NCBI GenBank assembly: GCA_963930775.1
Contig: OZ005692.1
Span: forward strand, 2,404,135 to 2,468,134
From: Cliona cf. orientalis
Lineage: Eukaryota > Porifera > Demospongiae > Clionaida > Clionaidae
Direction: 5' to 3'
Length of the DNA: 64,000 nt
The notes under the pieces are model-generated. The model saw nothing but the letters and a program-made list of their open reading frames with translations. It was not told where the DNA came from and made no database searches. How positions within the stretch are numbered: position 1 is the first letter of the stretch; the number at the start of each line of letters is the position of its first letter. This document shows, piece after piece, positions 24,210 through 56,170 of this stretch. Position numbers and translations under genes: made by a program.

Positions 24210-27200
24210 GAAAGAGAGGGAGAGAGGGAGGGAGGGAGAGAGCATGCATGGAACGCTGTATAGACTGTGCCATGGAAGCTCAGACACATGCCTGGACTAA
24301 TAATTGGTGTCCTAATTTAGGAGGTATCCTCATTTAAGGGGCGATATTGGTCATTTTCCTATGTACGTACGTTGAAGTTGGGACTACTGTAAATTAGCGA
24401 GACACTTGGTGCACATACAAATTAAATGACTGTGGTCACATGATTGTATCACATGACCCACACACAGCGTCAGCGGAGGCTGTGGCAGCTGCCAAGGCGG
24501 CCCAGACTGAGATGTACCAGGCTCTGCTGAGTCGGCGAGCAGCACTGGTCATCGACTTTGAGAAGAAGGCGGCCAGATACAAGGAGATACTCATCAAGGA
24601 AATGGTTAGCTGGAGTGTGTGTGTGCATACTGTACATACTGTAATGTTTCTTGTGGAGTGGATGCATCAATGATCTTGCCAGAAGCACAGGTGGACAAAG
24701 TACTTAATAAACTATGCTACAGTGATACAGTTATTTAGCATGGGAAATACAGTCGAGCCTCTAATAAAGGACCCTCCAAGAAAGGCCGGGACACTGTACG
24801 TGTGTTGGACCTCTTTTTAAGGGACACTGTTTGGAGTCCCAAAAACTACCATTCCCTATAGTTTCTATTCATTGAGAACCTCCGAGAAAAGGACAACCTC
24901 TCTATAAGGGACAAAATAGCTAAATTTATATTGTCCCCAAAGTGTCCTTTGTTTGGAGGTTCGACTGTATACGGAGGGGGTGGGATAGATTAATTAGAAA
25001 TTCCAATAGCCTGTAGGTGCTTGATACATGATACTGCTGCCCTCCTCTATCTCTGTCTCTCTTCCTCTCTCCCTCCCTCTCTCACTCTCTCTCTCCCTCC
25101 CTCCCCCCTCCTTTGCAGCAAATCACTGGTATTCCTCCTGATGGATTGACCCCTGAGGAAATTGAGAGGATGAGAAAGAAATTTGGCGTCAGCTTTAAAT
25201 TCTCCAAATTTGTCTTAGATAAAGGTGTACAAGTAAGTCATACCCATAATAGAGGTCATGTACATGTATGTATGTCATCCAGTGTCAAGTAACTAATTCG
25301 AATTTTCTTTTTTCTTATATTTAGGGTGAAGAGGATGAGGTGGAGACACTTGAAAAGGAAGTGGAAATCAATCAGTCAATATTGAGAGCAAACAAAGTTA
25401 GTTGATCACGTACTTAGACTACACATGTACATGTACATGTACATGCACTCCATATCCCCCCCCCCCCCCCCCCCATCTCATGAATTATTACCAAATTTTT
25501 TTTTGTAATGCTTGAATGCCAAAACATATCAAGACTTGAGAGGCCCATTCTGATAATTTTTTCTTAATTATTGCTAAACTAACAAAGGGATCATAAATTT
25601 TTGTATCTAACATTACGTAGACACTGCTGGATCAAACTAGGGATAGAAAGCTGAAGAAGGACCGCAAAAAAGACATCAAAACTATGGAGGAAAAGGTGGG
25701 GTAAATTTGCTTTATATTATGTATACATGTACCTCAAAAATACGTGATAAAATTAATATGGATGGGGATCTTTACTTACGTATTATACGCCCTGTATGAT
25801 ACAGCTTCAGAAACTCGAGGGCAAGGTTGAAGAGTTGAAGAAGAACAAAAGAAGTAGCACATCCTCCACGGGGTCAAAGTTCCAGATGGACTCCCCAACG
25901 TCAAGTAAGCATGCACTTTTGCCCTTGTACAAAAACTGCCATAACCCCTACCCTCTCTGCCTAGTCCTTCCCAATCCACATTGTCCATTGCAACTCCTAC
26001 ACATCTACATGTACATGTATACATCGTATGACCTCCCTCCCCCAATAACACACAATGTACATGTATGTGCATGTACACTCCCTCCTTTCCCTTCCAGGTG
26101 TTCTAGCTATCCTACCTACAGCGTAATGTACATGTATGCGTGTCCAACCATACCCTATAATCCCTTCCCCAACAAACACGTTAACAATATACATGTACAT
26201 GTACACAATGTCATACATGTACACCCTCTCCTTTCCCTCCCAGGTGTTCTTGCTCTTCCTGGGTCGGTCCCAGTCAATCGCCGTCGCAGTGGCACTCCAG
26301 GGGGCGGGAGCATCGACGACAACTTTCTCGCAAGCATGATCTTTGACACGCCCACCAAACCCACGTCCCATAACACCACCCCTCAACCTTCGAACCTTCA
26401 AAAGTCACCCCTTCATAAAAGCACCTCGGCTCTCAATGATATGCCCTCGACAACTTCGACTCCGCCCACTGGGTCGTTCGCGCACTCTAACAGGCAGCAC
26501 AGTCAGGTTTCGACATCGCACTCAATGGGACCTGGTAATTACCAGGGGCATCCCCCAAGCAGTCACGAGCATGCATATTCGGAAAATTATACTCGATATT
26601 CTTATGGCAACGATTCTCATTTTATGGTAGGGGGAGACTCCTATGCTGACGAGTACGATTTGTCGCCTCAAGGAAGTCTCGTAAGTGGGAGTGGCTCCGT
26701 CTTTTCTCCGCCCAATTCCAACAACACTTCTCGGAGGAGCGATTACGGACCGAGAGAGTCCAATCTGACGGACGATTTTCTTCAACATTTCAGCAGCTCG
26801 CGAGGACATCCTCCAGCTCAACATCACCCACAACACCAACACTACACCCCAGAAAACCGCTCCCCCATGGCAACGGTGAGATCAGATGCATCCTTAAAGA
26901 GTCGCATTCCCGTTCCTCGTAGGTCGAATGTGTCCGATTCTGTCACCGTTCCGGCTAATTCGTCACCCATCACTCGATACAAGCGAGCCTCGAGTCCAAC
27001 ACTTGGTTTTCCTGTCGAAGGGAAGGCCGGATATGTTCAAGCGTACAGGGAGCAGCGGGAGTATTCTCCTGATACTCATCACTCTCACCGTGCCCCCCAT
27101 GGGGGACAGTACGATCATACCCCCCAACAGCAACACTATCAGCAGGAGGTACAGTATCGCCGCAACCCCCAAACACTGCCACACTCATACCAGACACCCT

Positions 27201-27688
27201 CACCTATCTCTGCCGGGAATTACAGTCAACATTATCCACAAGGCTCGTCATCAACAGGGAAACCTCCTCACTCTGGTGGTGCCCCTTCAATGTCCCGTAA
27301 GGCTCCACCCACTAATCTACCCTCGCCCCAGAAGCCACACCCCTCACAGTATGGCGGTCATTCTGGTCAAACGAGAAGCAATGCGCTCTGGTACGATGAC
27401 AATTCAGGGATTGAAGCCGCGTCATCTGGGAATGCTGCAGCTCAAGCAGGGGGACATCCTGTACACAGAATGTCAGGTGGTAGTCACATGACTGCCAGTG
27501 GTGGTCACGTGATCAGTGATGGGCAGAGAAAGAATCAACCTCCTGGTGGTCAAGCTCCACCTAGTTCACAAACACAAGGTATTACACTACCTAGACAGCA
27601 GTCAGAGGAGAGTTATGGTCTTCAGGAGATATTGAACATTTGGGACAGTAGCAGTAAGAGCCCTTTTGGCGAAGGAACGTTGGTATAG
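13486..27688 (+). CDS. FRMD4-like FERM and CUPID domain scaffold protein
   Basis: Seventeen exons with fully matching phases give 1001 aa: 13486-13554, 18683-18777, 19460-19555, 19793-19877, 20242-20321, 21247-21327, 21731-21854, 22312-22398, 22497-22576, 23157-23292, 24008-24137, 24468-24604, 25119-25232, 25325-25396, 25621-25695, 25805-25904 and 26244-27688. Residues 1 to about 311 form a FERM domain. Stretches such as FQWLQLQNIYYKDKKFSMEV and SLPMYSMHFFEVKDKKDVPL closely follow vertebrate FRMD4A/B. Residues about 355-510 match the CUPID/DUF3338 region (ALLSRRAAL, then a basic coiled coil), which in vertebrate FRMD4 binds cytohesins and links to Par3 at epithelial junctions. The tail (about 520-1001) is Ser/Pro/His/Gln-rich and disordered, ending EGTLV. 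Intron 1 is 5.1 kb. The 3' end converges on the Kelch exon of the NACHT gene, 188 bp away. Confidence 0.93.
13919..13986 (+). repeat. (CT)n microsatellite in FRMD4 intron 1
   Basis: An almost perfect CT dinucleotide run of about 65 bp. Other CT runs occur at about 14368-14440. Confidence 0.95.
14750..14835 (+). repeat. GA-rich and poly-G low-complexity tract
   Basis: Alternating GAGAG blocks surround a run of 14 Gs. It is a possible site of polymerase slippage or assembly error. Confidence 0.8.
15460..16690 (+). repeat. Degenerate tandem repeat in FRMD4 intron 1
   Basis: A unit of roughly 130-250 bp recurs about seven times. It is marked by CCCCTCCCACTTT-like blocks near 15474, 15650, 15812, 16062, 16205, 16380 and 16510. 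Between them lie a GGTGGTTCC or GTGGTTCC block and a TTAGC-TTCTA block. Units are strongly diverged. No coding potential was seen. Confidence 0.6.
16745..16830 (+). repeat. ACATGC/ACATGT tandem microsatellite
   Basis: GCACAT hexamers repeat about six times, flanked by GTACATGTAC units. The same TACATG theme is scattered through most spacers and introns in the window. Confidence 0.9.
16841..17399 (+). mobile_element. About 560-bp inverted-end element, copy in FRMD4 intron 1
   Basis: Starts TTATCTCCCCAGTAGCAATT and ends GCTACTGGGGAGATGG, making ATCTCCCCAGTAGC terminal inverted repeats. The interior is nearly the same as the copies at 45650 and 56292 and the forward half of 9170-10211. Non-autonomous. 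Confidence 0.85.
18880..18912. repeat. Poly-G / poly-C hairpin
   Basis: A run of about nine Gs is followed within about six bases by about 15 Cs, so either strand can fold on itself. It lies about 100 bp after FRMD4 exon 2. Confidence 0.8.
20433..20532. repeat. Hairpin-forming inverted repeat after FRMD4 exon 5
   Basis: AGTCTATCAAGCTACATGTA, then GACCCCTTTTTCG, pairs with CGAAAAGGGGTC and TAGCTTGATAGCTAGACT downstream. The arms span about 100 bp with a short loop. Likely a mini MITE. Confidence 0.75.
21432..21576. mobile_element. Small MITE with GTTGTAGCCAG ends
   Basis: AGTGTTGTAGCCAG on the left is mirrored by CTGGCTACAACTCT on the right, about 145 bp apart, in FRMD4 intron 6. Confidence 0.7.
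21927..22116. mobile_element. MITE with TACCGTAAATCGCGAATATT ends
   Basis: About 190 bp in FRMD4 intron 7. The left end is mirrored by AATATTTGCGATTTACGGTA on the right. The interior repeats GAAATATTT and CGAAAATTA themes. Confidence 0.85.
24138..24250 (+). repeat. (GA)n tract directly after FRMD4 exon 11 donor
   Basis: The donor GTGAGG runs straight into about 100 bp of GA dinucleotide repeat. Confidence 0.9.
24748..24970. mobile_element. Tc1/pogo-like MITE with ACAGTCGAGCCTC ends
   Basis: TACAGTCGAGCCTC at left mirrors GAGGTTCGACTGTA at right, about 220 bp, in FRMD4 intron 12. ACAGTCGAACCTC-type ends flanked by TA are typical of Tc1/mariner-related non-autonomous elements. No transposase is present. 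Confidence 0.8.
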
Positions 27689-27876: not shown

Positions 27877-28833
27877 TTACAAAATTGATGCTATTTCTAT
27901 CATTTGGCATGTTTCATCGTCACCACCACCTTCGGATCCAGCAACTAACAGTTCTCCAGTGGGTAGAACAATGCATCCACTGGTACATCGTTTGGTAGGT
28001 AGCTCTCCAGCCATGACCCAACTATTACTGCTAGGTTGATAAATGTGGATAGCTGAGCTTCCTGAAGACCCACCACCAATTGCTAGCAGAGCTCCATTGA
28101 AGGCTAAGGTGGTGGAGTAGTCCATTGGTGTATCAGGTAATGACTGCCATGGTGATGGCACTGGTATGGGTGGAGCACTTGCACTTGTTGGTTGGGAAGC
28201 AGCTTGAGAGATGAGGTCATCCAAACACACGCTGAATACCTTTTTGGATGGACCTTCCTCAGTGAAGCCACCCAAGAGATAACACATGTTCCCAATTATA
28301 GCTAATGGTGCTTGTTTACATGGCTGAGGTAGTGATGCAGCTTGGTACCACTGTACTGGCTCAGTAGTGTCCAAAATCTCAATTCTTGAGGGGAAAGTGT
28401 ATCCATCACCTTCACCTCCCATCACCATCAGCCACCTGTTGTTGTGGGTAACTACTGATGGTGAGTTGCACGCTGTGGTCATTGGTGGCAATGGGTGAGT
28501 CCATCTCTTTGACTGCTCATTCCATACCCCCAGCTTATTGGTCTTTTTATGATGCCTTTCTTTTTCACGTCCACCGACCAGTACTAGTTGGCCACCAACA
28601 ACAGCCATGGAAAAGTATCTGTGTGTATACAGAGGTAGAGTATCCCAGGAGTCCTGCTTAGGCTCATAGACTATCACTTTTAGCTCATCCCTGTCTGATG
28701 ATGTCACCCCTCCTCCAATGTACACCTTCTCCTTGACCATCACCACCCTTGGGTATCCATACATCCCAATAGGCATATCCTTCCCTCTCCTCCATTTCAG
28801 CCTCAAAGGAAGCTTCAGTTCCACTAATGCAGT
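27877..28833 (-). other. Kelch terminal exon (copy B) of the NACHT gene
   Basis: A single 957-bp exon encodes a Kelch propeller with strand ends VYIGGG, LVLVGGR, MVMGGEG, YLLGGF and LLAIGGG, then the stop codon. It starts at phase 0 after a CGCAG acceptor. The same exon type ends kinase gene C (41130-42083), which is very similar, and kinase gene A (3163-4065), which is more diverged. The preceding exon (30445-30342) ends at phase 0, so the join to the Death-domain exons is in frame. Confidence 0.9.
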
Positions 28834-31800
28834 CTGCGTACAACAACAAAAATAATAATATTATTATCGTTGTATCACCAAAATTAATAATGAATACTCA
28901 TGTATGAAATTTGAAATCAAAGACAAGACCCATCAGTTTAAACCTACTTAGTCTAGATTTGTAATACATGTTATAGGATTAGCTAGATCAAAGCAAATGG
29001 CTAGTGGATCCACAGCACATAATTATTCTGAGCCGAATGATATCGATGTATTGTAGCCTAATTATGATTAAAGTGCCAAGTACCAATAAATACACAGTCA
29101 TATATAATATATAGCTACATTTTGAAACTTGTTGCAAATTGATGCATACATTGGCCACCTTCAAAGCATGGTGAAAATGGCGTAAATTCATGATCAAACA
29201 TAATGCAAATGCATCATCAGCATTATCAAGCCAATACAATGTCAAAATTAATACGATTGCACTATCAGTATTATCAAATGCAAACACATTTCAAATAATT
29301 TAATGCAAAATTAATGTATCATTAGCAGTTTAAATTATGAATGAATAGTTAATGTGATATCAACTGATTCAAATTTGTGTATATAATACATGTATAGCCA
29401 ATATTGCCATCAATAGTCTCACCAGCCAGTCTGCATGTGGATTGGGCTGGTTACCAGAAGTTATAGTAGGTTAAAATGAGTGAATGGCACCAGTGAGTGA
29501 GATAGCAGCCAACTACAAGCAAGTAGAAGCAGTGGAAACTACAGTGGACTCTCCGAATAACGGACACCTTGGTACATAGGCTTCTGTCCTTTATTCAGGG
29601 TACAATATTATATGTCCTTTATTGGGATGTTTTACTTTAGTCACCCCCCACTTCATCTAACTCAATTTTATAGCCAATAATTCATTGTTATAAAGAAATT
29701 TATGACATACTCAACTTGAAGTGTTTTCACGACATTGTATTGCACTAGCTATTCAGTCTGTTTCAAAGAAGTGATCGACTCGACGAGTGTCAATTGCGTC
29801 GACGTCATGGTGGACGAATGGCTAGCTACTTGGCATTTGAGCAAGTAAAGCAGTGGCTGTTGTCATTACTATAGCTAGACAAAGTACTACCGTTTTTTTA
29901 GAGTGTCTACATGTATTACCGTCTTATTATTTTTGTACAGATTGTTAATAATGCCATGAACTGCATGTATACAAAGGTCATGCGCGGGGTTAGCTGCACC
30001 CACCGCCGTCCGTTAGTCGGAACGTTTTTTGTATAGTACTGTATACTTCGTGCAAGCTGCTGTGTCCATTATCCGGAATTCGGAGGTTGTCTGCTATTCA
30101 GGTGCTGCTACTATATAAAACATAATATGGAGATATCGGTAATTGGTACATATAGCAGTGTCCGTTATTTGGTAGAGGTCCGTTATTGGGAGTGTCCGTT
30201 AATAGAGAGTTCACTGTATATATAAGAAGCCCTGTTTCAGCAGACATCACACCTCCCACTAAGCGGACATTTGCATGCATGCGGTAAATATAATTATGTC
30301 ACTCTCCTGCCCCCTACCACCACCAAGTATATGTACATTACCTTGGAAGGTTGCTCTTTATTAAGATTTCTATCCGTGAATTGTGGTACAAAGGACTTAT
30401 TTTGTGACTTGAGTACCTCCTCACTGCAAACTTCACCTGCATCTCCTGTGATCCACATAATATAGTAATAATAATTATTATTACATGGTTTCTCAACTAG
30501 CTAAGTGATCCAAAGGGTAAAGTTTAATAATAATGGCAGATGCTAGATGTAGTACTGTTCAGGAGATTTCTATGTCAGCTAGTATGATCAATAGATTATA
30601 ATTATGCTAGAGAAGATCATCGAAATCCGGACGGTTTTTATAAAGCAACCCATAACTTTCGGACATAACAATGATTTTAAATGATAGAGTACTCAGTAGA
30701 TAGAGCTACCAGTCAGCTAACGAATGACGCAAACCGTATGTCCCAATCTTTGTTGCAACGCGTGCAAATTGTGCTCAAAGATACAGTGTTACAAATTTAA
30801 AACCGGACCTCCGCTTCAAATCTCGGACATGCTTGCATATTCTATATCTTGGTGATGATCAGAATCGGTCAACGCTGCTACAGGTACATGCACTAGCAGC
30901 TAACTCTGGTCCACCATTTCGATCGTGTTTAGCCACGCCCACCAGTGGGACTCCACCCAATCATTTTCGATGAATCGGACGCAAATAGAGGATGACTACT
31001 GGCTAGCTCCACTTGTAAGCTAAAGAAAGTTGTAGAAAGCATGGAATCATTTAGTATATGGCCTACCATGACTGTGATTCCGACCAAACTCATCTAAAAC
31101 CGCATGTCCGGGATTCGACGATATCCGATGATTGGTAAATTACTCTACCAAGCAAATAACCTCACCGTATACATGTAAATATTTCTACAGAGCCTTATAT
31201 AATTGTCTATGAAGTTTCAATTAACTGAAAGTACTTGCTATCAATATACTATAATAGTCTTGTACTGTTTGACCATGCAGTTCTTATACCTTTTGGGAGA
31301 TTTTCTTCTTTCACCATGACATACACCGCAGTTGACTCAGTCGATGTCAATGGTTGTGGAACTTGAGGTAGTACATGTGGTTTGTAATCTGGGTATGCTG
31401 GGGGTTGCTCTATTTGAGGATGCTCCTCTCCACTGCCACTGGAATCATCTGTGTCACTGTTGCTAATGTGAGCAATCCTTCTTACTTTATCAGCATAGCT
31501 TTTATAGCCAGCTTGCTCAAAGATCTTTATCAACTTGCCATAGGTTGCCTTGGAACCATTCCTTGTTTTCCAGGTATACAATGCTTTTCTCCTACAATAA
31601 TAATTATAATTATTAGGTGGCAAGGATTATTACACCGCATTTCATGGGGTCAATGTAGCAGGTGCTATGTATACAAATAATATCCAGGATAAGTGCCCAA
31701 AATTATGAGTTATATACATTTAAGTGGTTGTGGCTGCTTACCCAGGACACTATAGTATTATCAATCTATGAGTACACTTCTTCCCAGGAAGACTCACGTT

Positions 31801-34800
31801 TGTAAATTCAATTCTCTTGGGTACGCTGTCTTGATATTTGCAATATCCTCTGGTTTCAGTTTGAGCTTATCGGCAATGGGACCTTCCCACTCAGTCATTG
31901 AATCAGCTACCTTACCAAGGTGGCTCTCTTCAACCTCAACATCCAGCTGATTAACAGCAGGTCCTGTAATAATTTTATATATAGGTATCAGTTCTCATAA
32001 TCCTAAACCATAAATTATATCATTATATAAGATTATAGTTGTCCGTCCACGGTCTGTCCGTTACGGAAGGTCGCCGGCGGAAGTGATTTGACCTCGCGAC
32101 ACAAGTGGCTATATCCCTGGCCCTGGAGCATTAGAAGCTAAAACAAGGCGATCTTTGTGAGCGCCAGCCTAGGCACTAGCTACAGGCACGAACACTACCT
32201 TCTTGGACGGACTGTACAAAACTAAGCAACAAATGGGGACTTAATTACATTCAGTGGCCTGCAGTTAGGCAAGCAGCTTGATTCGTGAGAAGTCGTCGTC
32301 CTAGTGGTCATCACAGAGGTAGTAGATTCTGACTTTGGCTTCTTGCGCTCTCGAGTGTTGCGAGCAAGTTAACGACCTTTTTAGACAGTTGATTGATTTA
32401 GCCATGTGCTCAAGCAGGATACGATAAATGCGCATGCTCAATAGAATGTTCCAGAACAGGTCATGGGTGGTTTCAGCCACCTGCAGTTGCAATTAACCTA
32501 GAACTCTGGCCTCTGGCCAGGCGCTTAGAAACACAGTTCTAGCGGACAGTTGGTATCATAACTGCGCATGCTGAATAGATTGCTCCAGAACGCAGGTATA
32601 AAGGGTAATCTTAGCTACTCAACTATCCTCTATTAATTATAATAGCTATGTGACCCATAAAAAGCAGGGGGCGAGCGGAGCGAGCCCCCCGTGCTTGTAT
32701 ATATTATAGCTATAATATGATACCTCTTTTATAGATGTTCCATATCTTATAGCCTTTTGGTGGACGAGTGCGTTTGTGAAAAGTTTTGCATCGTAGCTTG
32801 AGAGGTTGACTTGATGCGATCACAGCTGGATGTGGGTGGGTTTTGCACTCAGGCAGTGTGCAATAAAATGTCCAACAATATTCACATTTCTTGTACAGTT
32901 TTGTCACAATTTTCATACACTTGTCAATCTGTGTATGCACTTCCTTGTAGGCAAGATTTCTTGTGAGTTCTGTTTCAGATTCTGAACTTTCATCGGAATC
33001 TGCACATGCAGAATTATCTTCCTCGGGATCCAAAGCAATTTCAAGGTGGGTGGGTAGGATTTTGAGAGTAAGATCATAAGCTCCAATATTGAAAGAAACT
33101 TGATTTCTGAATATTTTATGTGGAAGGAGATACCATTCCTTTCTTGAATTCATTTCGTTGGTCATCAGGCACTTAATTAGAGCTCCAGCTATGCCTCTGG
33201 GACAGAAGCCAGTTTCAAATGCAATCACCACTTCTGGTGGTGTACGGGGAGGTGTTAATTTTACTGTGGGATCTGGAGCCTTTGAAACATGGCAAAGAGC
33301 TGATGGGAAGAAAAATTTTTCTCCATACTGATCCTTGAACAAAGCAGCCAGTCGAAGTTGATTTAGAACCTTCGTCAGCCACGTCAATGGTAGCTGAGCT
33401 TTTCCACTGGATCCCTCACTGATTCTTTTCACGACTGCTAAAGAAATGATACCCCTCTGACGAAAGTCTTCAATTTCTTTATGAGTGGCAGTTTTACCAC
33501 TAAACGTTTCAATTATCAAGTCTGTGATTTTGTCGAATAGAATCTGAGGATCGACCACTACCAGTGAACTGAGCTCATCTACATCAAAGTACCGCACAAG
33601 CCCCAGCCTGGAGTGAATGAAAGAAAGGGCTATTGTTAATTCTTCTTGGTTTGATATTCCACATTCTTGAGCTATCTTGAAGCAATCCTCAAACCGCAAG
33701 ACTCGATTTGATTTATGTTTTTCGCGGAGAATTAAGCTGAAAATTAGCCACGAGGAAGGGCACCGCACTGTAAACTCTTTGTGGCATCTTTCTTCGACTG
33801 TTTGCTGCACTGCAAAACGTATCTTTTGAAAATCAATATCACCTTTGGATAAATTATTCACTGTAAAAAGTAAGTGATCTTCATCACTACTTTCAAAATC
33901 TGAAGCAAACTGAATTGAACCTTGATGGTAGAGAGAAGTTTGCTTGACATATCTTTGAATTTTTTCATCAATCTGGACTATCTCTTCTGTCTCAGACTTC
34001 AAACAATCTCTATGCGTTCCAATTATGAAAACAGTGGGTTTTAGGGTGATCTCCTCATCACGAATTTGAACACTGACAAAGTCTAGTGTGTAAATTGTTG
34101 CAAGCGTTTGGAGAATTTCTTCCATTAGCGAAGAAGGTGATGAATACTCCTCTACCGAACCATCAGAATACTCGTATCGTACTTCGTATGGCTTATCTAG
34201 ATCGTGGTGAAGTGGAAATGTGACAAAAAATATGGAAGGACCACAAACTAGGAGGGGGAGATGTTCCTGAAACTCAATCTGTCCACCAGTGTTGGTGAGG
34301 TAGAGAGACCATGATGATTCTAGATGCTCACGAAGTGCATCCATGCGTCTTAACTTCACTGCCTTCTTGAAGACGTCTACTGGTGCCACATCAGAACGGT
34401 AGACCATTATATGTTTATTCTCTTCTTCAAAAGTATCTGTATCATCACTGGTAGTACTTTCGGACTCTTGAGGTTTGTCTGCTGTAGATGAGTCTTGTTT
34501 CGATGCTTGATCCAATTTAGTTTTGGAAGGCAGTGCTAATGGTTTCTTATCTTCCACAGAATCTGATTTCTTTAGATAAATATACTTGATTGTGACTGGT
34601 CTTGGTATGTCACTAGAATGTGAATAATTTTTGGCTGTTGTCATCATTAACTCAAGTGCCTCTTCATCATACTTCAACTTCCGCCACTTCAGATTACATT
34701 TATCACTGGCTACTGCACACAGCTTCTTCACTTCCACTTTAACTACATTCTCCAGTACTCCAGTGCTTGGTGATACTTCACTGGGATCTGGTGGTCCTTC

Positions 34801-37800
34801 TCCTGTCAAACGTTTTAATAAAGTATTCTTTCCTGATCTTCCAGGACCAACAATCACGCCGTGAGCAATGGTGTGATCGATAGTTCCTTTGGTCCTTATT
34901 GACTCTTCCATTATAGTCAGAAAGTTCTTATCCACTTCAGACATGTCATCCAATCGTAGATCAAAGTTAGTGCCAAGCCTAGCAGTGAGCTGAGACACTA
35001 TAGCACTGAATTCTGGATCATTGCATGCACCTACTTTGTTACTAGAAAGATCAAGTCGCCGTAGGCATTGGCACTTAGTCGAAAGAGTTGTGGCAAAGCA
35101 TTTCAAGAAACTCGCATTAATATCTTCTGCAAGTGATCCTTTTAATAATAAAATTTCCATTTCTTTCGCACCATCTTTGTTGATATGTTTCTGAAAGGAC
35201 TCTAAAGATGCTACTGAAAGAGAGTTAAAGGAGAGGTCTAGCTGGATGAGACTCTTACATGAAGAGTTAGCAAATGCATCAATAATCGCCCGGAAACCTA
35301 CTTCTCCTATATCACAGCTACGAAGGAACAGCTTTTCCAACGAACGAAAAGCAGATGAAGCTCTGCTAAAGAAATCAGCTATTATTGCGTCACTGAGCCC
35401 ATTATCACTAAGATCAAGCCCCTTCACTCGAATCACCTTGGATCGATCGCCAAGCACACCAGCTAACTTGGGAACCTGCCTCGCTTTTAGCTTACAATTT
35501 TTAAAGTTGATCTCCACACTGCTTGGTTGCTCTATCTTCTCCAGTACATGCACCATAGCAACACACTCATAAGCATTCTGAGCATGAAGCATGATCGTAG
35601 AACCTGAAGCATGCAGTGATTTAGCTACCTCTTGATCGACAATTTCATTCTTAGATTCAAATGAAAGAAGACACATATCTTTGCAGCAATGGTGCAGCTT
35701 TTGAACAACTTCTGACACAATATCAGAGCTCGGGTTTTCACTCACACTCAAGTAGAATCTACAGAACATGGGATTAATGTGACGCACGCTCTTTATCACC
35801 TCTAACTGTTCACTTTGTGGCTGTGTTGTGAGATATGAAACAGCAAGGTAATATCTGAAAGCAGGACAGAGAAAGGAGAACATCACTTCGTCACTACCAA
35901 CAGCTGCAGGCTTAAGCAGGCCAAACATTTCCAACTCTGTTGACAGATAAGTGGAGGCGATTGTTTGGGAAAAATCAGCTTGGCATTTTTCGAAACCTAA
36001 CTGACACAAATGCGACCACGACTGCTGTAATTCATTAGGAAGGTCTTGATATTTCTGAATTAATTTATTTTCATACCCTTTAGTGCTATCAATAATTTTC
36101 AATTGAGCAAGGTTCCAAGCAAGCTTCTCGTACAACTCTGGCATAGTGTTGGGAAGTGCGTCGTCACATGACTGAAAATAGCTGCATATCATGGAGATAT
36201 TAATAGGCACACTACATACACTTCCCAGTAGGGGGTTACTCTCTAACTGTGTCATGATGGAGGTTAATTTCTCTGGATTGCTGTTAAATTCGCACTGGAT
36301 ATAGGACTTAGTCGTTTCCTCACTAAATCCTTTAACTGTAATGAATCGGCTGATGGACTGCTGGGTTGTTGGAGCAGATTTAGATGTTACTACTATCGTC
36401 AAAGATGAACTGGGGACAAGGTCGCCAAACAGAAGGCGATACAAGAAGGATTCTTTTGAGCTATTGGACTCTGAAAGCTCGTCCCATCCATCGGCAATCA
36501 TAAGAATATTCTCTTTCTTGTTAGCCTTTAAGTATGTTGCTACAGTAGAGCACACTTTGCCATCAAATTCAAGATTTTTGAAAAGCTCTTGTAGATTTTG
36601 AGCTGAGGCGACACCCCTCTGGTTGAGTGGAAGGAGAAATACCATAAGAAATTCCTGAAAGAGCTTCCCATTTGCCCAGTCCTCAGCGATCGAAGCACAA
36701 AGAATAGTTTTTCCAATGCCAGCTTCGCCTACGATAAGAATCCTTGAGTTGCCACCCTCCTTTCTATCCTGGTCTCCCTTGAAAAGGCTACTGTAAGAGA
36801 GGTGGATCGATTTTCCAGTGATGCCCCTTTCATCAGTTGATTGATTGGACAAATACTGCTGACTTTCAAGTAATTCTAAATTGGCTATGTTCCTTAACTG
36901 GCATGGACACTGCTTTTTGTAAGCATTTTTTATGTTCCTGTACTTGTTTCTGATTTGGGAGAGGATGTGGTCTGGAATTTCAATGTCCATTGCAACTTGC
37001 TATTTATACCGAGTGTATGTGTGTATGTGTATGGGGAAGAGGGAGAGTTAGGTGAGTGAGCTGGTCCGTACTAATGAATTTAATTATATTGTCTAAGTAC
37101 CAATAATTATTATTAATTTGCAACATTAATAAAGAAACTCATTGAACTCAATACTCAACCAATGAGCCTTACCTTAGTGATCTGGGATGAGCTTGATGCA
37201 CTGATGACACTACTGGTTTCATAGCCAGTGTCAGCATTAGAAACTGTATCTTCTGGCTTTTCTCCCCCTTGTTTGAGCAACTGAGTACCCTAAAAATTAT
37301 TTCAATACCGGTATTCACATGAATACTTAACCATAATTAACTGTGCCTTACATCAGTTATCAGAGATGAGCTGAGAGCAATGTTGGTGTCACAAGTAGTA
37401 TCAGTATTAGAGGCTGTATCCTCCGGCTTTTCCATAGCCTGTCCACTCATGGGGGCCAATTTATCATCTAATGACAAAACAGTACATAATATTTAAGCAT
37501 GTTGTATACCATACTGTCCAGGATAAGTGCCCATGGGCGCTTAAACATAACTCGTGATTTTGGCCTGCGTGGGCGCTTATCCGGGATACAACTTCCATAC
37601 GTTTGTATAGAAGCTGCTACATAGACCCCTTGAAATGAGATATAATACATGGGTGCTTACCCGGGGGTGGGCGCTGCTCGGGATACTACAGTATAGATGT
37701 ATGTGATGCTTCACATTAAATTAACAATATTCCAAGTACAGCTGGAAATATAATGCATATGAAAGCAATATAAGATGTACTTGAGAGGATTCGTTATGGT

Positions 37801-38918
37801 TTCCTGCTAGTAATTAATTCCACTATCCTTGCAGTACTTCCCTACATGTTGTAACAAGGGCCATTGGGTCCACCAGAGAATGGAATGTGAAACATTTATT
37901 TGGTGTAATTCGATACACACACATCTACGTATAATAGCGGCAGTTTATATACAACACCAGAATGGAAGCCAATTGTACAATGTTACGTATGTTGTGTGCT
38001 GTGTTGTACTAACTATATGTTAACATTGTGTGTTGCTGTACTCCACCTTTAGCTTGATGCTCTCTAGCAAGTTTCTCAAACAGGGGTTGGTCCACTCTGC
38101 TAACTGTTTTCAGAAGTGATTTCCAGGAGGGGAGACCGTATTTCTCTGTGTTATAGTCTCGTAGAATCCACTGCATGAGAGCCTCGTTCCAGGATCCTTC
38201 ATTATCATCATTACTGTCCTTGATGGTACGAATTGTTTTGAAAGACAAACCCATAAATCCGCTAAGCTGTTTCCACTTAGCAGCCAGTGGGCTACAAGCG
38301 ATTATGACATCATTCCAACTCTCCTCATCTGAAAGAATACAGCACATAACATTTTCCCTTTTTTCACTCTCTCTGAATAGAAATAGGCAGCTATGTACTC
38401 ACCGAATGTTGTGTCATCAACTGTCGAGAGGATCTCATCAACTGTTTCTATAAATCAGCAAAGTGAATACATGATTTATATGGTGTAGTTGGTACTGGTA
38501 TATGTGCACACATGCCCAGTGCATATAATATTAAATTTCAATATTATGCATATTATACAAAATACTATATACAATCATGCACAATACAGGTGCACACATA
38601 CCAAATATGGGCAATCATTATTCAAAGCACAGTCTAATAATTATTATGTGTATAATAATAATATTATTATTTTTAATCTAGTGTCAGTCCCCATCCCCTT
38701 CAAATCTACAATAATATTATAAAACTGGAATCATATTTATTATCCTACCAGCATATTATGTTTAATAATGATTTTAGTGGCCTACCTTGACCGAGAGGCC
38801 CAGGGTTGAGTTCCACATCCCCAGACATGAGTAGACATTGACGCTTGACCACCAAGAAGTAGGCAATCGTGTGGTAGAGGTACAATATCACTGATACTGA
38901 CTGCTTATCTAGAAACAT
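27877..38918 (-). CDS. 2A leader-Death-NACHT-LRR-Roc-COR-Death-Kelch protein (predicted 2165 aa)
   Basis: Ten exons, minus strand, every junction GT-AG and phase-matched: 38918-38786, 38447-38403, 38328-38047, 37467-37352, 37289-37173, 36999-32724, 31963-31798, 31591-31290, 30445-30342 and 28833-27877. Domains with approximate residues: hydrophobic leader and 2A motif 1-41; Death domain 60-152; two similar Ser/Thr-rich exons 154-231; NACHT from about 320, with P-loop GEAGIGKT at 322-329 and Walker B-like MIADGWDEL near 400; LRRs 730-915; Roc GTPase with P-loop GPGRSGKN near 950, G3 NTGGQ near 1135 and G4 GTHRD near 1226; COR about 1300-1470; second Death domain about 1670-1760; Kelch 1848-2165. 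It resembles an NLR fused to the Roc-COR-Death tail known from DAPK1-type proteins, plus a propeller. A cytosolic or membrane-linked sensor is inferred. The chosen ATG (38918) is the first in frame with A at -3. Confidence 0.82.
29540..30220. mobile_element. pogo/Tigger-like non-autonomous element in NACHT gene intron 9
   Basis: ACAGTGGACTCTCCGAATAA at left is mirrored by TTAATAGAGAGTTCACTGTA at right, about 680 bp. The interior repeats GTCCGTTATT-like motifs near both ends. Ends of the ACAGTGxACTCTC type are typical of pogo-related MITEs. No intact transposase. Confidence 0.75.
30612..31131. mobile_element. MITE with ATCGAAATCCGGACGG-type ends
   Basis: ATCATCGAAATCCGGACGG at left pairs imperfectly with CATGTCCGGGATTCGACGAT at right, about 520 bp. 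Internal GGACATxx motifs recur. Non-coding, in intron 8 of the NACHT gene. Confidence 0.7.
31625..31757. mobile_element. Partial copy of GTGTCCCGGG-type MITE
   Basis: Shares GGGTCAATGTAGCAG and GCTTACCCAGGACACTAT-like blocks with the copy at 50174-50336. Truncated at the left. In the intron that splits the second Death domain. Confidence 0.6.
32665..32697. repeat. GC-rich short hairpin downstream of the giant NACHT exon
   Basis: AGCAGGGGGCGAGCGG is followed by AGCGAGCCCCCCGTGCT, forming a compact stem. It lies within the intron, 27 bp beyond the donor of exon 6. Confidence 0.6.
37507..37693. mobile_element. GTGTCCCGGG-type MITE in NACHT gene intron 3
   Basis: Ends ACCATACTGTCCAGGATAAG and GGGATACTACAGTAT with the same GTGGGCGCTTAxCC interior theme as 11443-11615. 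Confidence 0.7.
38796..38822 (-). other. 2A ribosome-skipping motif GDVELNPGP in exon 1 of the NACHT gene
   Basis: Codons for GDVELNPGP match the D-V/I-E-x-N-P-G-P consensus of 2A peptides exactly. At a 2A site the ribosome fails to join the final Gly and Pro but continues, so one reading frame yields two products. Here the split would fall after residue 40, releasing a 40-aa leader and a protein starting at Pro41. Just upstream is a hydrophobic stretch (SVSVILYLYHTIAYFLVV, residues 7-24) that could act as a signal or signal anchor. From memory, similar leader-plus-2A arrangements are known for NLR-type proteins of sea urchin and sponge. Confidence 0.9.
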
Positions 38919-39939: not shown

Positions 39940-40933
39940 GCAGCCATCCTCAACATCACCCACACTGGTACATTACACCCAGGCCAGAAAACTGCGGCAC
40001 CCCCATGACGTGAGTGAACATTAAAAGGTCAGAAACTTAAAGAGCCTGGTCAGTTCCTGGATCTATATGGAAGGACGACTCGCGAAAATATTAACAGGTC
40101 CCCGAAACCCAAACCCTGTCACGCTAAAGCGAAAATTTGGAGTCGTTCATCCATATTGAACCCATTTCCTGAGTCTAAGGTGTCCAATTCTATCACAGTT
40201 TTATCAGCCAATTCGTCTCCAAATCTTGGTTTTCTTATCAAAGGGAAGGCTGGTTATGTTTGGGGAACAGTGGGAGTACTCTCCCAGCACTCATGATTCT
40301 TATTACTCCCTTGCCCCCCATGGGTGGCAGTAGCTACATTAATCATGCATGCCGGCGCCTTCCAACAGCAACCCCCACACCAAACACTATCAGGAGGTAC
40401 GTACCAACACTGCCACACTCGTATAATGTTATTATATTATTATCACACATGCTCTCCTATCTCTATCTCTGCCAGGATTTACAGTCAACATTATCCACAA
40501 GGCTCGTCATCGACAGGGAAACCTCCTGTGCCCCTTCAATGTCCCGTAAGGCTCCACCCACTAATCTACCCTCTCCCCAGAAATCACACCCCTACAGTAT
40601 GGCGATCATTCTGGTCAAATGAGAAGTACTGCTCTCTGGTACGATGACAATTCAGGGATTGAAGCTGTGTCGTCTGGAAATGCTGCTGCTCAAGCAGGGG
40701 GACATCCACACAGAATGTCAGGTGGTAGTCACATGACTGCCAGTGGTGGTCACATGACCAGTGATGGGCAGAGAAAGAATCAACCTCCTGGTGGTCAAGC
40801 TCCACCTAGTTCACAAACACAAGGTATTACGCTACCTAGACAGCAGTCAGAGGAGAGTTATGGTCTTCAGGAGATATTGAACATTTGGGACAGTAGCAGT
40901 AAGAGCCGTTTTGGTGAAGGAACGTTGGTATAG
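39940..40933 (+). pseudogene. Truncated duplicate of the FRMD4 3' exon
   Basis: This matches FRMD4 exon 17 from about position 26806 to its stop codon at 27688, in the same orientation. The upstream half is rearranged and shifted in frame (a GTACGTACC insertion and other indels near 40400-40620). The last 104 codons (40619-40933) remain open and nearly identical, ending SRFGEGTLV against SPFGEGTLV in the parent. It lacks FERM and CUPID exons and has no visible start, so it should not make an FRMD4 protein. It converges on kinase gene C's Kelch exon exactly as the parent converges on Kelch copy B. Confidence 0.9.
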
Positions 40934-42100
40934 TAGCTGTCATGATTGTATAATTATTCTAAAATTTTGTACTATAGATTGTGTTATGCCTATGTAATAA
41001 GAATGTTATGAAATTAATATTGTGTTTACATAAATTAATTATAATTTTATATTATGTTATTACAGATATTAAATTTTATTACAATGTGCACTCGATAGCT
41101 ACATTTAATACACACAGGTATTGTAGTGTTTACAAAATTGATGCCATTTCTATCATTAAATTTTGGCTTGTTTCACCACGACCACCTCCAGCAATTATCA
41201 ATTCTCCAGTGGGTAAAACAATGCAGCCACTGTGACCTCGTGGAGTAGGTAGCTCTCCAGCCATGACCCAACTATTACTGCTAGGCTGATACATGTGGAT
41301 AGCTGAGCTTCCTGGAAATTTCCCACCACCAATTGCTAGCAGAGCTCCATTTAAGGCTAATGCAGTGGATCGATCCATTGGTGTATCAGGTAGTGACTGC
41401 CATGGTGATGGCACCGGAGCATTTGTACTTGCTGATTGGGAAGCAGCTTGAGAGGTGAGTTCATCCAAATTCACGCTGAGTACCTTCTTGGATGCAGCTC
41501 CGGGACCCTTGATGAAGCCACCCAAGAGATAACACATATTGCCAATTGTAGCTGATGGTGCTTGTTTACATGGCCGAGGTAGTGATGCAGCTTGGTACCA
41601 CTGTACTGGCTCAGTAGTGTCCAAAATCTCAACTCTTGAGAGATTAGTGTATCCATCACCTCTACCTCCCATCACCACCAGCCACCTGTTGTTGTGGGTA
41701 GCTACTGATGGTGCGTTGCATGCTGTGGTCATTGGTGGTAAGGGGTGAGTCCATCTTTTTGATTGTTCATTCCATACCCCCAGCTTGTTGGTCTTGCTAT
41801 CATGGTTTTCTACTTCACGTCCACCCACCAGTACTAGTTGGTCATCAACAACAGCCATGGAAAAGTATATGTGTGTGTACGGAGGTAGAAAATCCCAGGA
41901 GTCCTGCTCAGGCTCATAGACCATCACTTTTAGCCCATCCCTGTCTGAGTCTGTCATCCCTCCTCCAATGTACACCTTCTCCTTGAACATCACCACCCTT
42001 GGGTATCCATACATTCCAAAAGGCATATCCTTCCCTCTCCTCCATTTCAGCCTCAAAGGAAGCTTCAGTTCAGCCAATGATGTCTGCAGACAAATGATAA
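39940..42100. repeat. Segmental duplication of FRMD4 tail plus Kelch exon
   Basis: The order FRMD4 3' end (+), AT-rich spacer of about 190 bp, then Kelch exon (-) is present at 26806-28860 and again here. Spacer motifs such as TTAATACACACAGGTATTGTAGTG also match. The 5' part of FRMD4 exists only at the first site, so this copy is the derived one. Confidence 0.88.
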
Positions 42101-44929
42101 TTATTATTGTGTTATAGCCAAAAATGGTATATTTATCATGTATGCATGGACTAATCCTGACCATATATTTATTTACAAACAATACCGGCATTGTTTGTAA
42201 ATAAATACATGGTCAGGATTAGTCACTTCTGTATGCATATATTTCATGTATTTCCTGTTCTCTACTCATGATCAGTCATCTCAGTTGTGCTCTCTAATAA
42301 TAATAATAATATTATAGTATACTATTTGTATGTATAGCTATGTCCTTGTGCACTTAAAAAAAACAACATTTATCTCAGTCAGGATAGTGCTAGCTAGGAT
42401 AGACTTGCCAATTGCAAGTTAGTCAGTTAGTTAGCTACTTATTATATATAGCAGTCTCTTTCATTGGTGGTGTGATACACCACAGATATTATAATATTAT
42501 AATTGCCAGTCAGTCTATGCAATTAAGATCCAAACAAACAGCTATATTATTAAATAGTGGATCCACAAGTACCACATGCATTCATATTATTATATTATTC
42601 ATATACCTTTTCTATCTTCATTACCCCAGTACCAGAGTGCTGCACTGCTCTCTGCAACAATTTTTAATATTAGTGAATTTCTTGTAGGAAGAGTTATAAG
42701 TTTATACAATGTCATGATATGCACAAATTAATGTACAAGATACTATAAATTTACTATTGATGGCATGTCCAGCAGTAATCTCACTATCTCGCTCTGTAAT
42801 CTGCTGATATCAGAATTCTTCTGTTGGAGTTCCCCTCTTAATTCTTCTTCTCTCTGTCGCTGTCTCTCTTCTAGTTGGTGGACTGCTGTCATGTGTTGGA
42901 TATCTTTTTGTTGGAGCTCTGCTCTGTGTGTTTGTTGCAGCTGAGTCATCTCTTCCTGTAATTACGAGAACATTAATGGCAGTTATTTTTATGTACTAGC
43001 TAATAGTTTCCTTATACCTCAGAGTCTAAGTTTACCTGAACTTGCTCCAGCTGGGTGTTCTTCTGTTGTATTTCCTCATCCTTTTGATAAAGCTCTGCTC
43101 CGTGCCTTTCACTAGCAATCTGTAATATCTGCAAATTAATGAATTCACTAAAATAATTTCGTGACAACAATAACCCTCAGAAGTTAAGCTACCCAAATTC
43201 AATACCTTCCAGTAGCCATTATCTTGATCAAGAAGTCACTTAATTGTAGCTATACTAATGCTGACCCTGTGTATTTACTAGTACAGTCTAGAATGTTAAG
43301 AGTGCATGTATACCTCAAGCTGATGTTGTAATTGCTGTATCTCCTGATCTTTTGCAGCCAACTGATTGAGTTTTTCTTTCTTCAAAGTCATTGCTGTCCT
43401 CACTTGCCTAGCAGCGTCCATCGTTGTCAATTCTCCACAAGGTCCTTCAATGTCTCCCTTTACCTCCTCCAGTGCTGTCACTAGCTGTTCTGCTGTGGGT
43501 CTCTGTGAGGGATCATTGTGTAGACAGGTCTTGATAAGAGCCACAAGAGCTCTCCCTTCCAGTTGGTCAAAGTAAGGCTGACGTCGCTCCACTTCAGAGC
43601 GACCCAATAACCTCCCTGGAGAGTCTGGATCAGCATAGTTAGGTTCCAGTAGATCACCAGGAAATATCTACATATGAACAAATCAAATTAAAGTGCAGCA
43701 GTGATATAATTATAGTGTTTAACGCATATTACACAGAAAATTATTATTATGTAATTGGTACTGTTGAAAGATCGTTGGCTAGTGTTGACTGAGTGAACTC
43801 TTTAAAATTAATGGCTTTGCCAGCTTGCTAAGTCTAGGCTATCTATAATCTAAGCTTGCCAAAAGAATAATAATTATAGCCATGCACAACATAATAATTT
43901 TTATTATAGGACCAGATTCCGAGACAATATTCTACATATCATATTACATTGATACTCCCTCCATAAATTCACTTACTAATGATTATACTATCAAGTTTGG
44001 TATACATAGCTTAGAGAAGATGTGATCAATGACATGTGGATGGTGGATAGGAAACAAGGAATCAATATAATATCATGGCCTACAATGAAATAGCTCAATA
44101 CAAGCCTGATTGGCTAAGCGCTTAAGCATGCTACCTGTAGAAGGGTAAAGAGAGCGAGATGACCAAATGAGAAGACATCAAGGCTGGGGCCATAGCGAGA
44201 TGATGATGAAAGTGCTTCAGGAGGCATGTACACCAGTGTCCCTGGTAACTGAGATAGCGTCCTTGCTTGCTGGCCAGGCTGTAGATTCACGATACGCGAG
44301 TTTCCAAAATCTGTGATTTTGGCCACAAAGTAGGATGTCAGCAGGACATTCTTTGCCGTCAGGTCCCTGTGGATGATTTGAGGAGTGTGCTTGTGCAGGT
44401 AGAGCAGACCCCTGGATACACCCTCTAGAATGGATCGCTCTAATGCTAGAGGGATGCTGGGGACTGTTTCAAGTAGATTATCAAGGCTACTGTCCAGTCT
44501 CTCCATCAGCAGCACAGGGAGTTGGCAGTTGGGGAGGAAACACACACCCAGGAATTGCGTGATATTGGGGTGACGAAGGTCAGACATCAGCTGACACTCC
44601 TGCACGTACTTTCTGGTTAAATTTTCTATTCCAGCATTATCATCATCAATGAGAATTTCATGGATCCTCTTGCCAGCACATACCAGACCATTCACTTCAA
44701 TCTGAAGGGAGGGAAGTTCCTTATTAGACTAATCCCCATCATAAAATTAATAATTATTTTACTGATGCTAAAAATTATAACTACTGTCCTGATCAGGGTT
44801 TCTGCATGTCTTTACCTCTTCAACTGATCCATAGGAGCCTGTGCCTAGTTGTTTTCCAGTGGCTCTTCCTTCTATTACAAATCTAGCCAGTTGGCGATCA
44901 TCGCGCAGAACTAGAAGACGTCGAGCCAT
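41130..44929 (-). CDS. Kinase gene C: TKL-like protein kinase-coiled coil-Kelch protein
   Basis: Seven exons, all introns phase 0: 44929-44816, 44701-44135, 43667-43314, 43128-43036, 42955-42755, 42651-42607 and 42083-41130, giving 775 aa. Kinase motifs: GTGSYGSVEE loop, CAGKRIHE with the probable ATP-binding Lys, HRDLTAKN, DFGNSR, and NDPSQRPTAEQL. Two coiled-coil exons follow, rich in Gln and Glu (AELYQKDEEIQQKNTQLEQ and ERQRQREEELRGEL), then a 15-aa linker exon and a Kelch propeller. Exon 2 has the same 567-nt length in genes A, C and D. The fifth exon has lost the donor used by gene D and appears to use a GTAAAT 18 nt further on. The ATG is chosen by alignment with genes A and D; the open frame upstream of it lacks an ATG. 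Confidence 0.88.
42150..42224. repeat. Near-perfect long hairpin beside Kelch exon C
   Basis: GACTAATCCTGACCAT through TTACAAACAAT is mirrored by ATTGTTTGTAAATAAAT through GGTCAGGATTAGTC, with arms of about 36 bp and a tiny loop. It sits about 65 bp upstream of the Kelch exon acceptor, inside the last intron. Confidence 0.85.
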
Positions 44930-49300: not shown

Positions 49301-49524
49301 ACGTCCCTCCCTCCCTTCCTCACACTTGTGAATATCTTGTCAATGCATCCCTCCAGTCTCTCTTCGTTGTCAATCTTCAACTGGAGTACCTGCTTGGCCA
49401 GATTCTGGAACTTCTGTGGAGTCAGCTTATTCAAGATTCCCTGGAACTTTCTGAAGAGCTCCTCTGTCTCTCTGTCCTTTCCATTTCGCCTCACCCAACG
49501 ATGCTCAGATTTATGGAGATCAAC
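46391..49524 (-). pseudogene. eIF4G fragment: MIF4G domain exons, interrupted downstream
   Basis: Phase-matched exons at 49524-49324, 49164-48949, 48749-48510, 48276-48118 and 47706-47419, plus one beginning at 47259, encode a clear eIF4G MIF4G domain ([48 protein letters not shown]). In full-length eIF4G this region binds eIF4A and RNA during translation initiation. The exon starting at 47259 runs into an inserted element near 47163 and meets a stop inside it. A further open, Gln/Ser-rich segment lies at about 46660-46440. The N-terminal PABP/eIF4E-binding part and the C-terminal MA3 and W2 domains are not visible. The first exon accepts at phase 0 just 225 bp beyond the last exon of kinase D. 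It may be a broken duplicate or part of a kinase-MIF4G chimera. Confidence 0.75.
46741..47163. mobile_element. MITE inserted in an eIF4G exon
   Basis: ACGGGGGCGTAGCTAGC at left faces GGCTATGCCCCTGTC at right, about 420 bp. Read on the minus strand it interrupts the eIF4G frame after codons for TETDKDK and adds a stop codon. Sequence resembling the exon's end (GTCAGAGACCATCAAG before GTATGC) resumes on the other side. Confidence 0.75.

Positions 49525-53151: not shown

Positions 53152-56170
<3,019 letters not shown>

What the first reader, a model, noticed from the sequence alone, without database searches (positions are those of the whole stretch)
27877..38918. Single gene predicted to fuse 2A leader, two Death domains, NACHT-LRR, Roc-COR and a Kelch propeller
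Seen: ten minus-strand exons with GT-AG borders, and every intron phase (1,1,1,0,0,1,2,1,0) matches across the join, giving a 2165-aa frame without a stop. Known: NACHT-LRR (NLR), Roc-COR-Death (DAPK1-like) and Kelch are separate modules of innate sensing and cell-death proteins. Inference: one protein carries two different P-loop NTPase switches (NACHT and Roc), two Death adaptors and a propeller that could bind ligand or substrate. I know of no described protein with this full order.
Basis: partly seen in the sequence, partly recalled or inferred. Interest (0 to 1): 0.95.

Follow-up and report, generated by a model that had tools for sequence, protein, structure and literature searches.

The report
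Immune NLR-ROCO gene with swapped tail
This animal gene joins two immune-type molecular switches and cell-death adaptor domains in one protein, and its last exon, a propeller domain copied from a neighbouring kinase gene, looks like one of several interchangeable tails found behind sister copies in the same genome.

Summary
The ten exons, GT-AG borders, phases and 2165-aa frame are as described. Exons 1-9 are well supported as one gene: in the six closest copies the 2A-leader exon, the N-terminal Death exon and the Roc-COR exon lie in the same order on one strand, and the 2A core is identical in 6 of 6. Roc-COR, missed by Pfam Roc, is supported by conserved motifs and a fold match to LRRK1/Roco/LRRK2. 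The Kelch exon is not part of this shared gene. It belongs to a family with 126 matches, mostly behind kinase exons where read, and duplicates the exon at 42.1-41.1 kb. At its place sister copies have SH2, kinase-Kelch, Death-C2, an ARF-like GTPase or SH3-SH2-tyrosine kinase. Exon 9 ends in a conserved phase-0 donor, and the Kelch exon keeps acceptor and frame (6 of 6 indels in frame, 4 of 20 outside). Fusion is therefore likely (about 0.7) but not shown: no RNA. Best reading: a lineage-expanded NLR-ROCO-Death receptor with exchangeable C-terminal modules. Variable tails are known for sponge TRADD-N proteins; I found no description of this core in my searches.

The parts
38786..38918 (-). Exon 1: hydrophobic leader ending in the 2A motif GDVELNPGP (aa 33-41)
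   Evidence: 2A core identical in 5 of 5 sister exons fetched
38403..38447 (-). Exon 2: 15-codon linker
   Evidence: Frame and borders only
38047..38328 (-). Exon 3: N-terminal Death-like domain
   Evidence: 18.5-20.5 bits, below Pfam cut-off; upstream of Roc-COR in 6 of 6 closest copies; single-sequence fold model gave no significant match
37352..37467 (-). Exon 4: linker
   Evidence: 73.7% identical in L021
37173..37289 (-). Exon 5: linker
   Evidence: 78% identical in L021
32724..36999 (-). Exon 6: NACHT, LRR, Roc and COR
   Evidence: Pfam; 319 database relatives; alignment; fold match of the C-terminal half
36280..36747 (-). NACHT domain; P-loop GEAGIGKT at 36729-36706
34825..34848 (-). 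Roc P-loop GPGRSGKN (G3 NTGGQ 34293-34279, G4 THRD 34017-34006)
31798..31963 (-). Exon 7: second Death, first part
   Evidence: Joined with exons 8-9: Death 39.4 bits
31290..31591 (-). Exon 8: second Death, second part, and linker
   Evidence: found in L021, L041, L042, not in L043
30342..30445 (-). Exon 9: linker with conserved phase-0 donor AAG|GTA
   Evidence: Found in the window and 4 sister copies
28834..30341 (-). Intron 9: NACHT-family homology to about 30262, Kelch-family homology from 28906, between them repeat-like and unmatched DNA
27877..28833 (-). Exon 10: Kelch propeller, candidate tail
   Evidence: Pfam; 126 relatives in the genome; duplicate of 42083-41133
40372..42144 (-). Source-like duplicate: last exon and 3' flank of the neighbouring kinase-coiled coil-Kelch gene
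   Evidence: 84% identical to 28906-27122

Best explanation
It is one member of a lineage-expanded family of intracellular immune-type receptors whose fixed core is 2A leader-Death-NACHT-LRR-Roc-COR-Death (exons 1-9) and whose C-terminal tail differs between copies. Here the tail is a Kelch propeller, acquired when a partial duplicate of a kinase-coiled coil-Kelch gene (terminal exon with its acceptor and 3' end, without the kinase) came to lie downstream of exon 9, whose phase-0 donor can splice to the phase-0 Kelch acceptor. Likely working, inferred: the 2A leader gives two pools of protein (leader-fused, secretory; leader-free, cytoplasmic), as shown for a sea-urchin NLR leader; LRR and/or tail sense a ligand or bait; NACHT oligomerises on ATP; Roc-COR is a second, GTP-dependent dimer switch; the Death domains recruit adaptors; the tail decides what is recognised or acted on. 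Shown: exon frame, conservation and order of the core, origin of the tail, different modules behind sister copies. Inferred: splicing onto Kelch, biochemistry, immune role.
For: Core: leader and Death exons upstream of Roc-COR on the same strand in 6 of 6 closest copies; 2A core identical in 6 of 6; exons 4-9 in L021; exon 9 with phase-0 donor in 5 of 5 copies read there. Roc-COR: invariant G1, G3, G4 residues; all 28 PDB fold matches at E<=0.001 are Roco proteins. Tail: Kelch exon is 80% identical in protein to 42083-41133, the duplicate starts at most about 75 bp upstream of the exon; 6 of 6 indels in frame inside the exon, 4 of 20 outside, Fisher p 0.0009; phase-0 acceptors of the Kelch, L021 SH2 and L042 Death tails. 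Variation: SH2, kinase-Kelch, Death-C2, ARF, SH3-SH2-kinase; 14 of 65 Roc-COR places have an SH2 within 5 kb downstream on the same strand, 0.08 expected.
Against: No RNA. Window-branch omega 0.52 is not significantly below 1 (p 0.062). Part of the outside indels lie in a coding frame of the other strand (25757-27685), so that control is not purely non-coding. In L042 a similar Death-C2 unit also lies upstream of the gene, so tails may be mere neighbours; the acceptor phase of the L041 kinase is unclear; L043 (two TGA in its Roc-COR frame) shows no clear tail. Nine of the 14 SH2 cases are one tandem cluster. NACHT was not read in four of the six closest copies. L030 shows that a Kelch copy without a kinase match in about 8.7 kb upstream also exists elsewhere.
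Confidence: 0.68

Rival explanations
1. The NLR-ROCO-Death transcript ends elsewhere and the Kelch exon is a truncated neighbour, a decaying or separately transcribed remnant of the kinase-Kelch array.
For: The gene lies among kinase-coiled coil-Kelch genes; Kelch fragments without kinase exist at 52926-52329 and 45456-45343, and L030 has a Kelch exon with coiled-coil frames but no kinase match upstream; 14 ATG-capable residues aside, an in-frame ATG occurs 18 codons into the exon.
Against: Frame kept through 6 indels; exon 9's donor is conserved and needs a partner; the duplicate holds no upstream exon of the kinase gene.
Confidence: 0.27
2. The 2A leader and first Death exon belong to a separate upstream gene and the NLR-ROCO protein starts in exon 4 or 6.
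For: The exon 3 donor (GTGGAG) is weak and exons 4 and 6 hold ATGs; in the L021 copy the Death exon lies about 10 kb and the 2A exon about 21 kb upstream of exon 4.
Against: Leader, Death and Roc-COR exons stay in order on one strand in 6 of 6 closest copies on three chromosomes, with the 2A core unchanged.
Confidence: 0.1
3. A pseudogene: the open frame is a recent relic.
For: One close copy, at C11:5.94 Mb, has two TGA in this half.
Against: No stop in 2165 codons; NACHT and Roc motifs intact.
Confidence: 0.04

Closest known systems
Sea-urchin NLRs with N-terminal 2A leaders (Roulston et al. 2016, PMC4981915; passages read)
   Same: 2A-like leader at the N-terminus of a Death-NACHT-LRR protein; there shown to recode translation and to act as a signal sequence
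   Different: The passages name no Roc-COR and no added tail; recoding here is not tested
Roco proteins LRRK1/LRRK2 and DAPK (solved structures matched; layouts recalled)
   Same: LRR-Roc-COR order; Roc-COR fold
   Different: Here a NACHT precedes the LRR, a Death follows COR, and no kinase is present in this copy
Amphimedon TRADD-N proteins (Kaur et al. 2021, PMC8195603; passages read)
   Same: Sponge expansion with Death-like domains and variable C-termini that include kinase and SH2
   Different: Core is TRADD-N, not NACHT-LRR-Roc-COR
Sea-anemone novel gene NG3 (PMC5094078; passages read)
   Same: Death, Roc/COR, SH3 and protein kinase in one protein, ascribed to domain shuffling
   Different: Has TIR; no NACHT-LRR named in the passages
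Dysidea avara NLRD genes (PMC12909245; passages read)
   Same: Expanded sponge Death-NACHT-LRR genes
   Different: Terms for COR domain, Kelch, SH2, GTPase, LRRK and tyrosine kinase do not occur in the main text, and the one 'roc' hit is 'rocky'; supplements not read
Plant NLRs with integrated domains (recalled)
   Same: Constant receptor, changing extra domain
   Different: Different NTPase class and kingdom; here the extra domain is not shown to be spliced on

Membership tests
NLR (NACHT-LRR) | NACHT domain | tested here: met
   78.9 bits, cut-off 26.7; nearest solved chains NLRP3 and NOD2-like
NLR (NACHT-LRR) | LRR after NACHT | tested here: met
   LRR_6 and LRR_1 above cut-off
NLR (NACHT-LRR) | N-terminal death-fold domain | tested here: inconclusive
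   18.5-20.5 bits, cut-off 22.6; related L042 exon 28.1 bits
Roco | Roc GTPase domain | tested here: inconclusive
   Pfam Roc not matched there; G1, G3, G4 residues conserved; Roco folds are the 28 best PDB matches of a model with mean pLDDT 59
Roco | COR directly after Roc | tested here: met
   COR-A 31.5 bits, just below cut-off 35.3, but above it in sister copies L021 and L028; fold match
Roco | GTP binding and turnover | not testable with these tools
   Needs purified protein
2A-led NLR | 2A motif at the N-terminus | tested here: met
2A-led NLR | Recoding and signal activity | not testable with these tools
   Needs translation and localisation assays
Kinase-coiled coil-Kelch family | Kelch terminal exon of the family | tested here: met
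   80% identical to 42083-41133
Kinase-coiled coil-Kelch family | Kinase exons upstream of the Kelch exon | tested here: not met
   No kinase match between exon 9 and exon 10
DAPK | N-terminal kinase and ankyrin repeats (recalled) | tested here: not met
   Neither in the Pfam results for exons 1-10

The most novel reading that the evidence does not exclude
The NLR-ROCO core (exons 1-9) is a 5' cassette with an open phase-0 splice donor that has been copied into different gene arrays, each copy splicing onto local downstream exons (Kelch, SH2, kinase-Kelch, Death-C2). That would be a tail-swapping immune receptor system in an early animal, convergent with the integrated domains of plant NLRs and, where kinases are captured, with LRRK2-like layouts.
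Probability: 0.38. Interest if true: 0.88.

Novelty: new variant of a known kind. Interest (0 to 1): 0.72.

Why it matters
Animal NLRs are usually described by their N-terminal domain and LRRs. A large family with a constant core that carries both a NACHT and a Roc switch, and with different domains behind near-identical sister copies, would give animals a counterpart of plant NLR integrated domains and a natural series for asking what the tail does. Sister copies followed by SH3-SH2-tyrosine kinase would couple an NLR directly to phosphotyrosine signalling. It also bears on how LRR-Roc-COR-kinase proteins such as LRRK2 relate to innate immunity.

Tried and rejected
Rejected: that the whole ten-exon order is a conserved architecture (no close Kelch at that place in L021, L042 or L043; a divergent one behind a kinase in L041). 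Rejected: an SH2 tail hidden in the window (tblastn with two different SH2 tails, best E 0.77 and 0.69). Discarded: codon-model run with a wrongly placed root, replaced. No use: sigma-70 promoter scan (wrong kind of organism), Rfam (no match), relatives in bacterial and archaeal genome contigs and viral contigs (none confirmed), fold model of exon 3 (no match at E<=0.001), tandem repeat scan (one short array in intron 9). Not used as evidence: TAZ-like zinc finger about 4.5 kb beyond the C17 Death exons, which may be another gene.

Limits: downstream DNA was read for 7 of 65 Roc-COR places (window, L021-22, L041, L042, L043, L024/26, L028-29) and partly for one more (L049). One search lists 66 rows; I dropped one (C17:1778171, a second piece of the C17:1778621 place) before counting. 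Genome searches score only the best candidates, so family sizes are lower bounds. Paper searches: all in an open-licence library; papers not named as passages read were seen as listings only.

Full report
Setting. The window is C4:2404135-2468134 of an unnamed 216.8-Mb genome in 149 contigs. A sponge is likely from the gene content but was not tested.

Pfam gives NACHT, LRR and Kelch above cut-off, COR-A just below, the second Death above cut-off once exons 7-9 are joined (39.4 bits), and the first Death below.

The core is a repeated gene. The Roc-COR half of exon 6 has 65 places in this genome (66 rows, one a second piece). For the six closest (window, C4:2.355, C7:8.732, C4:2.207, C11:5.939 and C4:2.889 Mb) the 2A-leader exon and the N-terminal Death exon lie upstream, on the same strand and in the same order, in 6 of 6. 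The leader core LMSGDVELNPGPL is identical in 6 of 6, and the three-frame translations show a GT donor after it in each. The NACHT half was matched or read in two of these six; in the other four I infer it from open frames of about 1430 aa. The 89% identical copy L021 carries exons 4 to 9 with GT-AG borders. Exon 9 was found in the window and four sister copies, each ending AAG|GTA in phase 0; exon 8 was not found in one of them, L043. Relatives of exon 6 in the protein database number 319 at E<=0.001, of which 120 were listed, 825 to 1611 aa long and without genomic context.

Roc-COR is real although Pfam Roc misses it. In 37 aligned sequences G718, P719, G720, R721, G723 and K724 of the Roc P-loop, all five residues of NTGGQ, and T995 and D998 of THRD are invariant. 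The AlphaFold2 model of the 732-residue half has modest confidence (mean pLDDT 59, pTM 0.62), yet all 28 Foldseek matches in the PDB at E<=0.001 are Roco proteins, led by LRRK1, C. tepidum Roco and LRRK2. A sequence-profile search of the PDB found NLRs and LRR proteins but no Roco protein among its 56 matches at E<=0.01, so this rests on fold, motifs, and COR-A, which is above cut-off in sister copies L021 and L028.

The Kelch exon has another origin. It matches 126 places in the genome, many close together on C4. Of 17 Kelch exons in the other fetched stretches, 15 have kinase matches upstream on the same strand; the exceptions are a divergent one at the end of L034 and L030, where coiled-coil frames but no kinase match were found in about 8.7 kb upstream. 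The window holds three such kinases and two further full Kelch exons behind kinases, plus two Kelch fragments without one. The segment 28906-27122 is an 84% duplicate of 42144-40372, the last exon and 3' flank of the kinase-Kelch gene just upstream of our gene. The alignable duplicate starts at most about 75 bp upstream of the exon, so it brought acceptor, exon and 3' end but no kinase exon. Between NACHT-family homology (to about 30262) and Kelch-family homology (from 28906) lies repeat-like and unmatched DNA.

Is it spliced on? For: exon 9's donor is conserved in phase 0 and needs a partner; the Kelch acceptor is intact and in phase 0; all 6 indels between the two Kelch copies inside the exon are multiples of three, against 4 of 20 outside (Fisher p 0.0009; part of the outside lies in a frame of the other strand). 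Weak: a codon model of 7 sequences and 300 codons gives omega 0.52 on the window branch, not significantly below 1 (p 0.062), and 1.0 on the kinase-linked duplicate. Against: no RNA; the exon could be a truncated neighbour with its own start. I put the fusion at about 0.7.

Sister copies carry other modules at that place. L021: four further exons that continue the frame and code an SH2 above cut-off; the only other relatives of this SH2 tail found are at C15:6.57 Mb. L041: kinase exons from about 0.4 kb after exon 9, then coiled coil and weak Kelch; acceptor phase unclear. L042: two Death exons with a phase-0 acceptor and no ATG at the start, then two C2 domains; a similar Death-C2 unit lies upstream of that gene too, so it may be a neighbour. 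L043: no clear tail. C8 copy: a long acidic exon and an ARF-like GTPase. C7:2.02 Mb: SH3, SH2 and tyrosine kinase. Genome-wide, 14 of 65 Roc-COR places have an SH2 within 5 kb downstream on the same strand (0.08 expected; 1 of 65 upstream, 0 of 65 on the opposite strand); 9 of the 14 lie in one C7 tandem cluster, 5 elsewhere. Of the 22 best SH2-kinase places, 15 lie within 15 kb downstream of a Roc-COR place. No SH2 trace was found in the window.

How it likely works (inference). The 2A leader, by analogy with a sea-urchin NLR leader shown to recode and to act as a signal sequence (PMC4981915, passages), would make a secretory leader-fused pool and a cytoplasmic leader-free pool. NACHT and Roc-COR are two nucleotide switches in one chain; Death domains recruit adaptors. 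The tail, different between copies whose core is 87-89% alike, would set bait, substrate or output; for Kelch I favour binding over catalysis.

Known context. Variable C-termini on a Death-bearing core are described for Amphimedon TRADD-N proteins, kinase and SH2 among them (PMC8195603, passages). Death, Roc/COR, SH3 and kinase occur together in sea anemones with TIR (PMC5094078, passages). Sponge Death-NACHT-LRR genes are described without Roc-COR in the main text (PMC12909245, passages). Searches pairing NACHT with Roc-COR, Roco or tyrosine kinase gave no paper that I saw to describe this core (four of the papers listed there seen as listings only or in passages). Hence: new variant of a known kind.

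Noticed in passing
C7:1.88-2.15 Mb and C15:3.24 Mb (L049): Roc-COR copies followed within a few kb by SH2-tyrosine kinase frames; the one read, at C7:2.022 Mb, has SH3, SH2 and tyrosine kinase in Src-like order.
   Followed up: partly
L024, C8:837.8-833.8 kb, minus strand: A 44% identical NACHT-LRR-Roc-COR-Death copy followed by a long acidic exon and ARF-like GTPase exons: possibly a third P-loop NTPase in one gene.
   Followed up: partly
L041, C4:2.199-2.207 Mb: Core followed by kinase, coiled coil and Kelch-like frames: if spliced, LRR-Roc-COR-Death-kinase-propeller, reminiscent of LRRK2.
   Followed up: partly
window 51861-50732, 44710-43311, 6355-5199, minus strand: Three kinase genes of a kinase-coiled coil-Kelch family; a kinase query of similar kind returned its maximum of 150 scored places.
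   Followed up: partly
window 25757-27685 and 40018-40930, plus strand: A 643-aa plus-strand frame without Pfam match whose 3' part is duplicated together with the Kelch exon.
   Followed up: no
L042 and C7:8.696-8.746 Mb: A cluster of C2 frames with Death exons nearby in which one NLR-ROCO copy sits.
   Followed up: no
window 49210-49524, 20131-20514, 54328-55320: MIF4G-like (24.7 bits) and FERM-like (18.3 bits) frames, both below cut-off; the third has no Pfam match and resembles HOIP/RNF31 from memory only.
   Followed up: no
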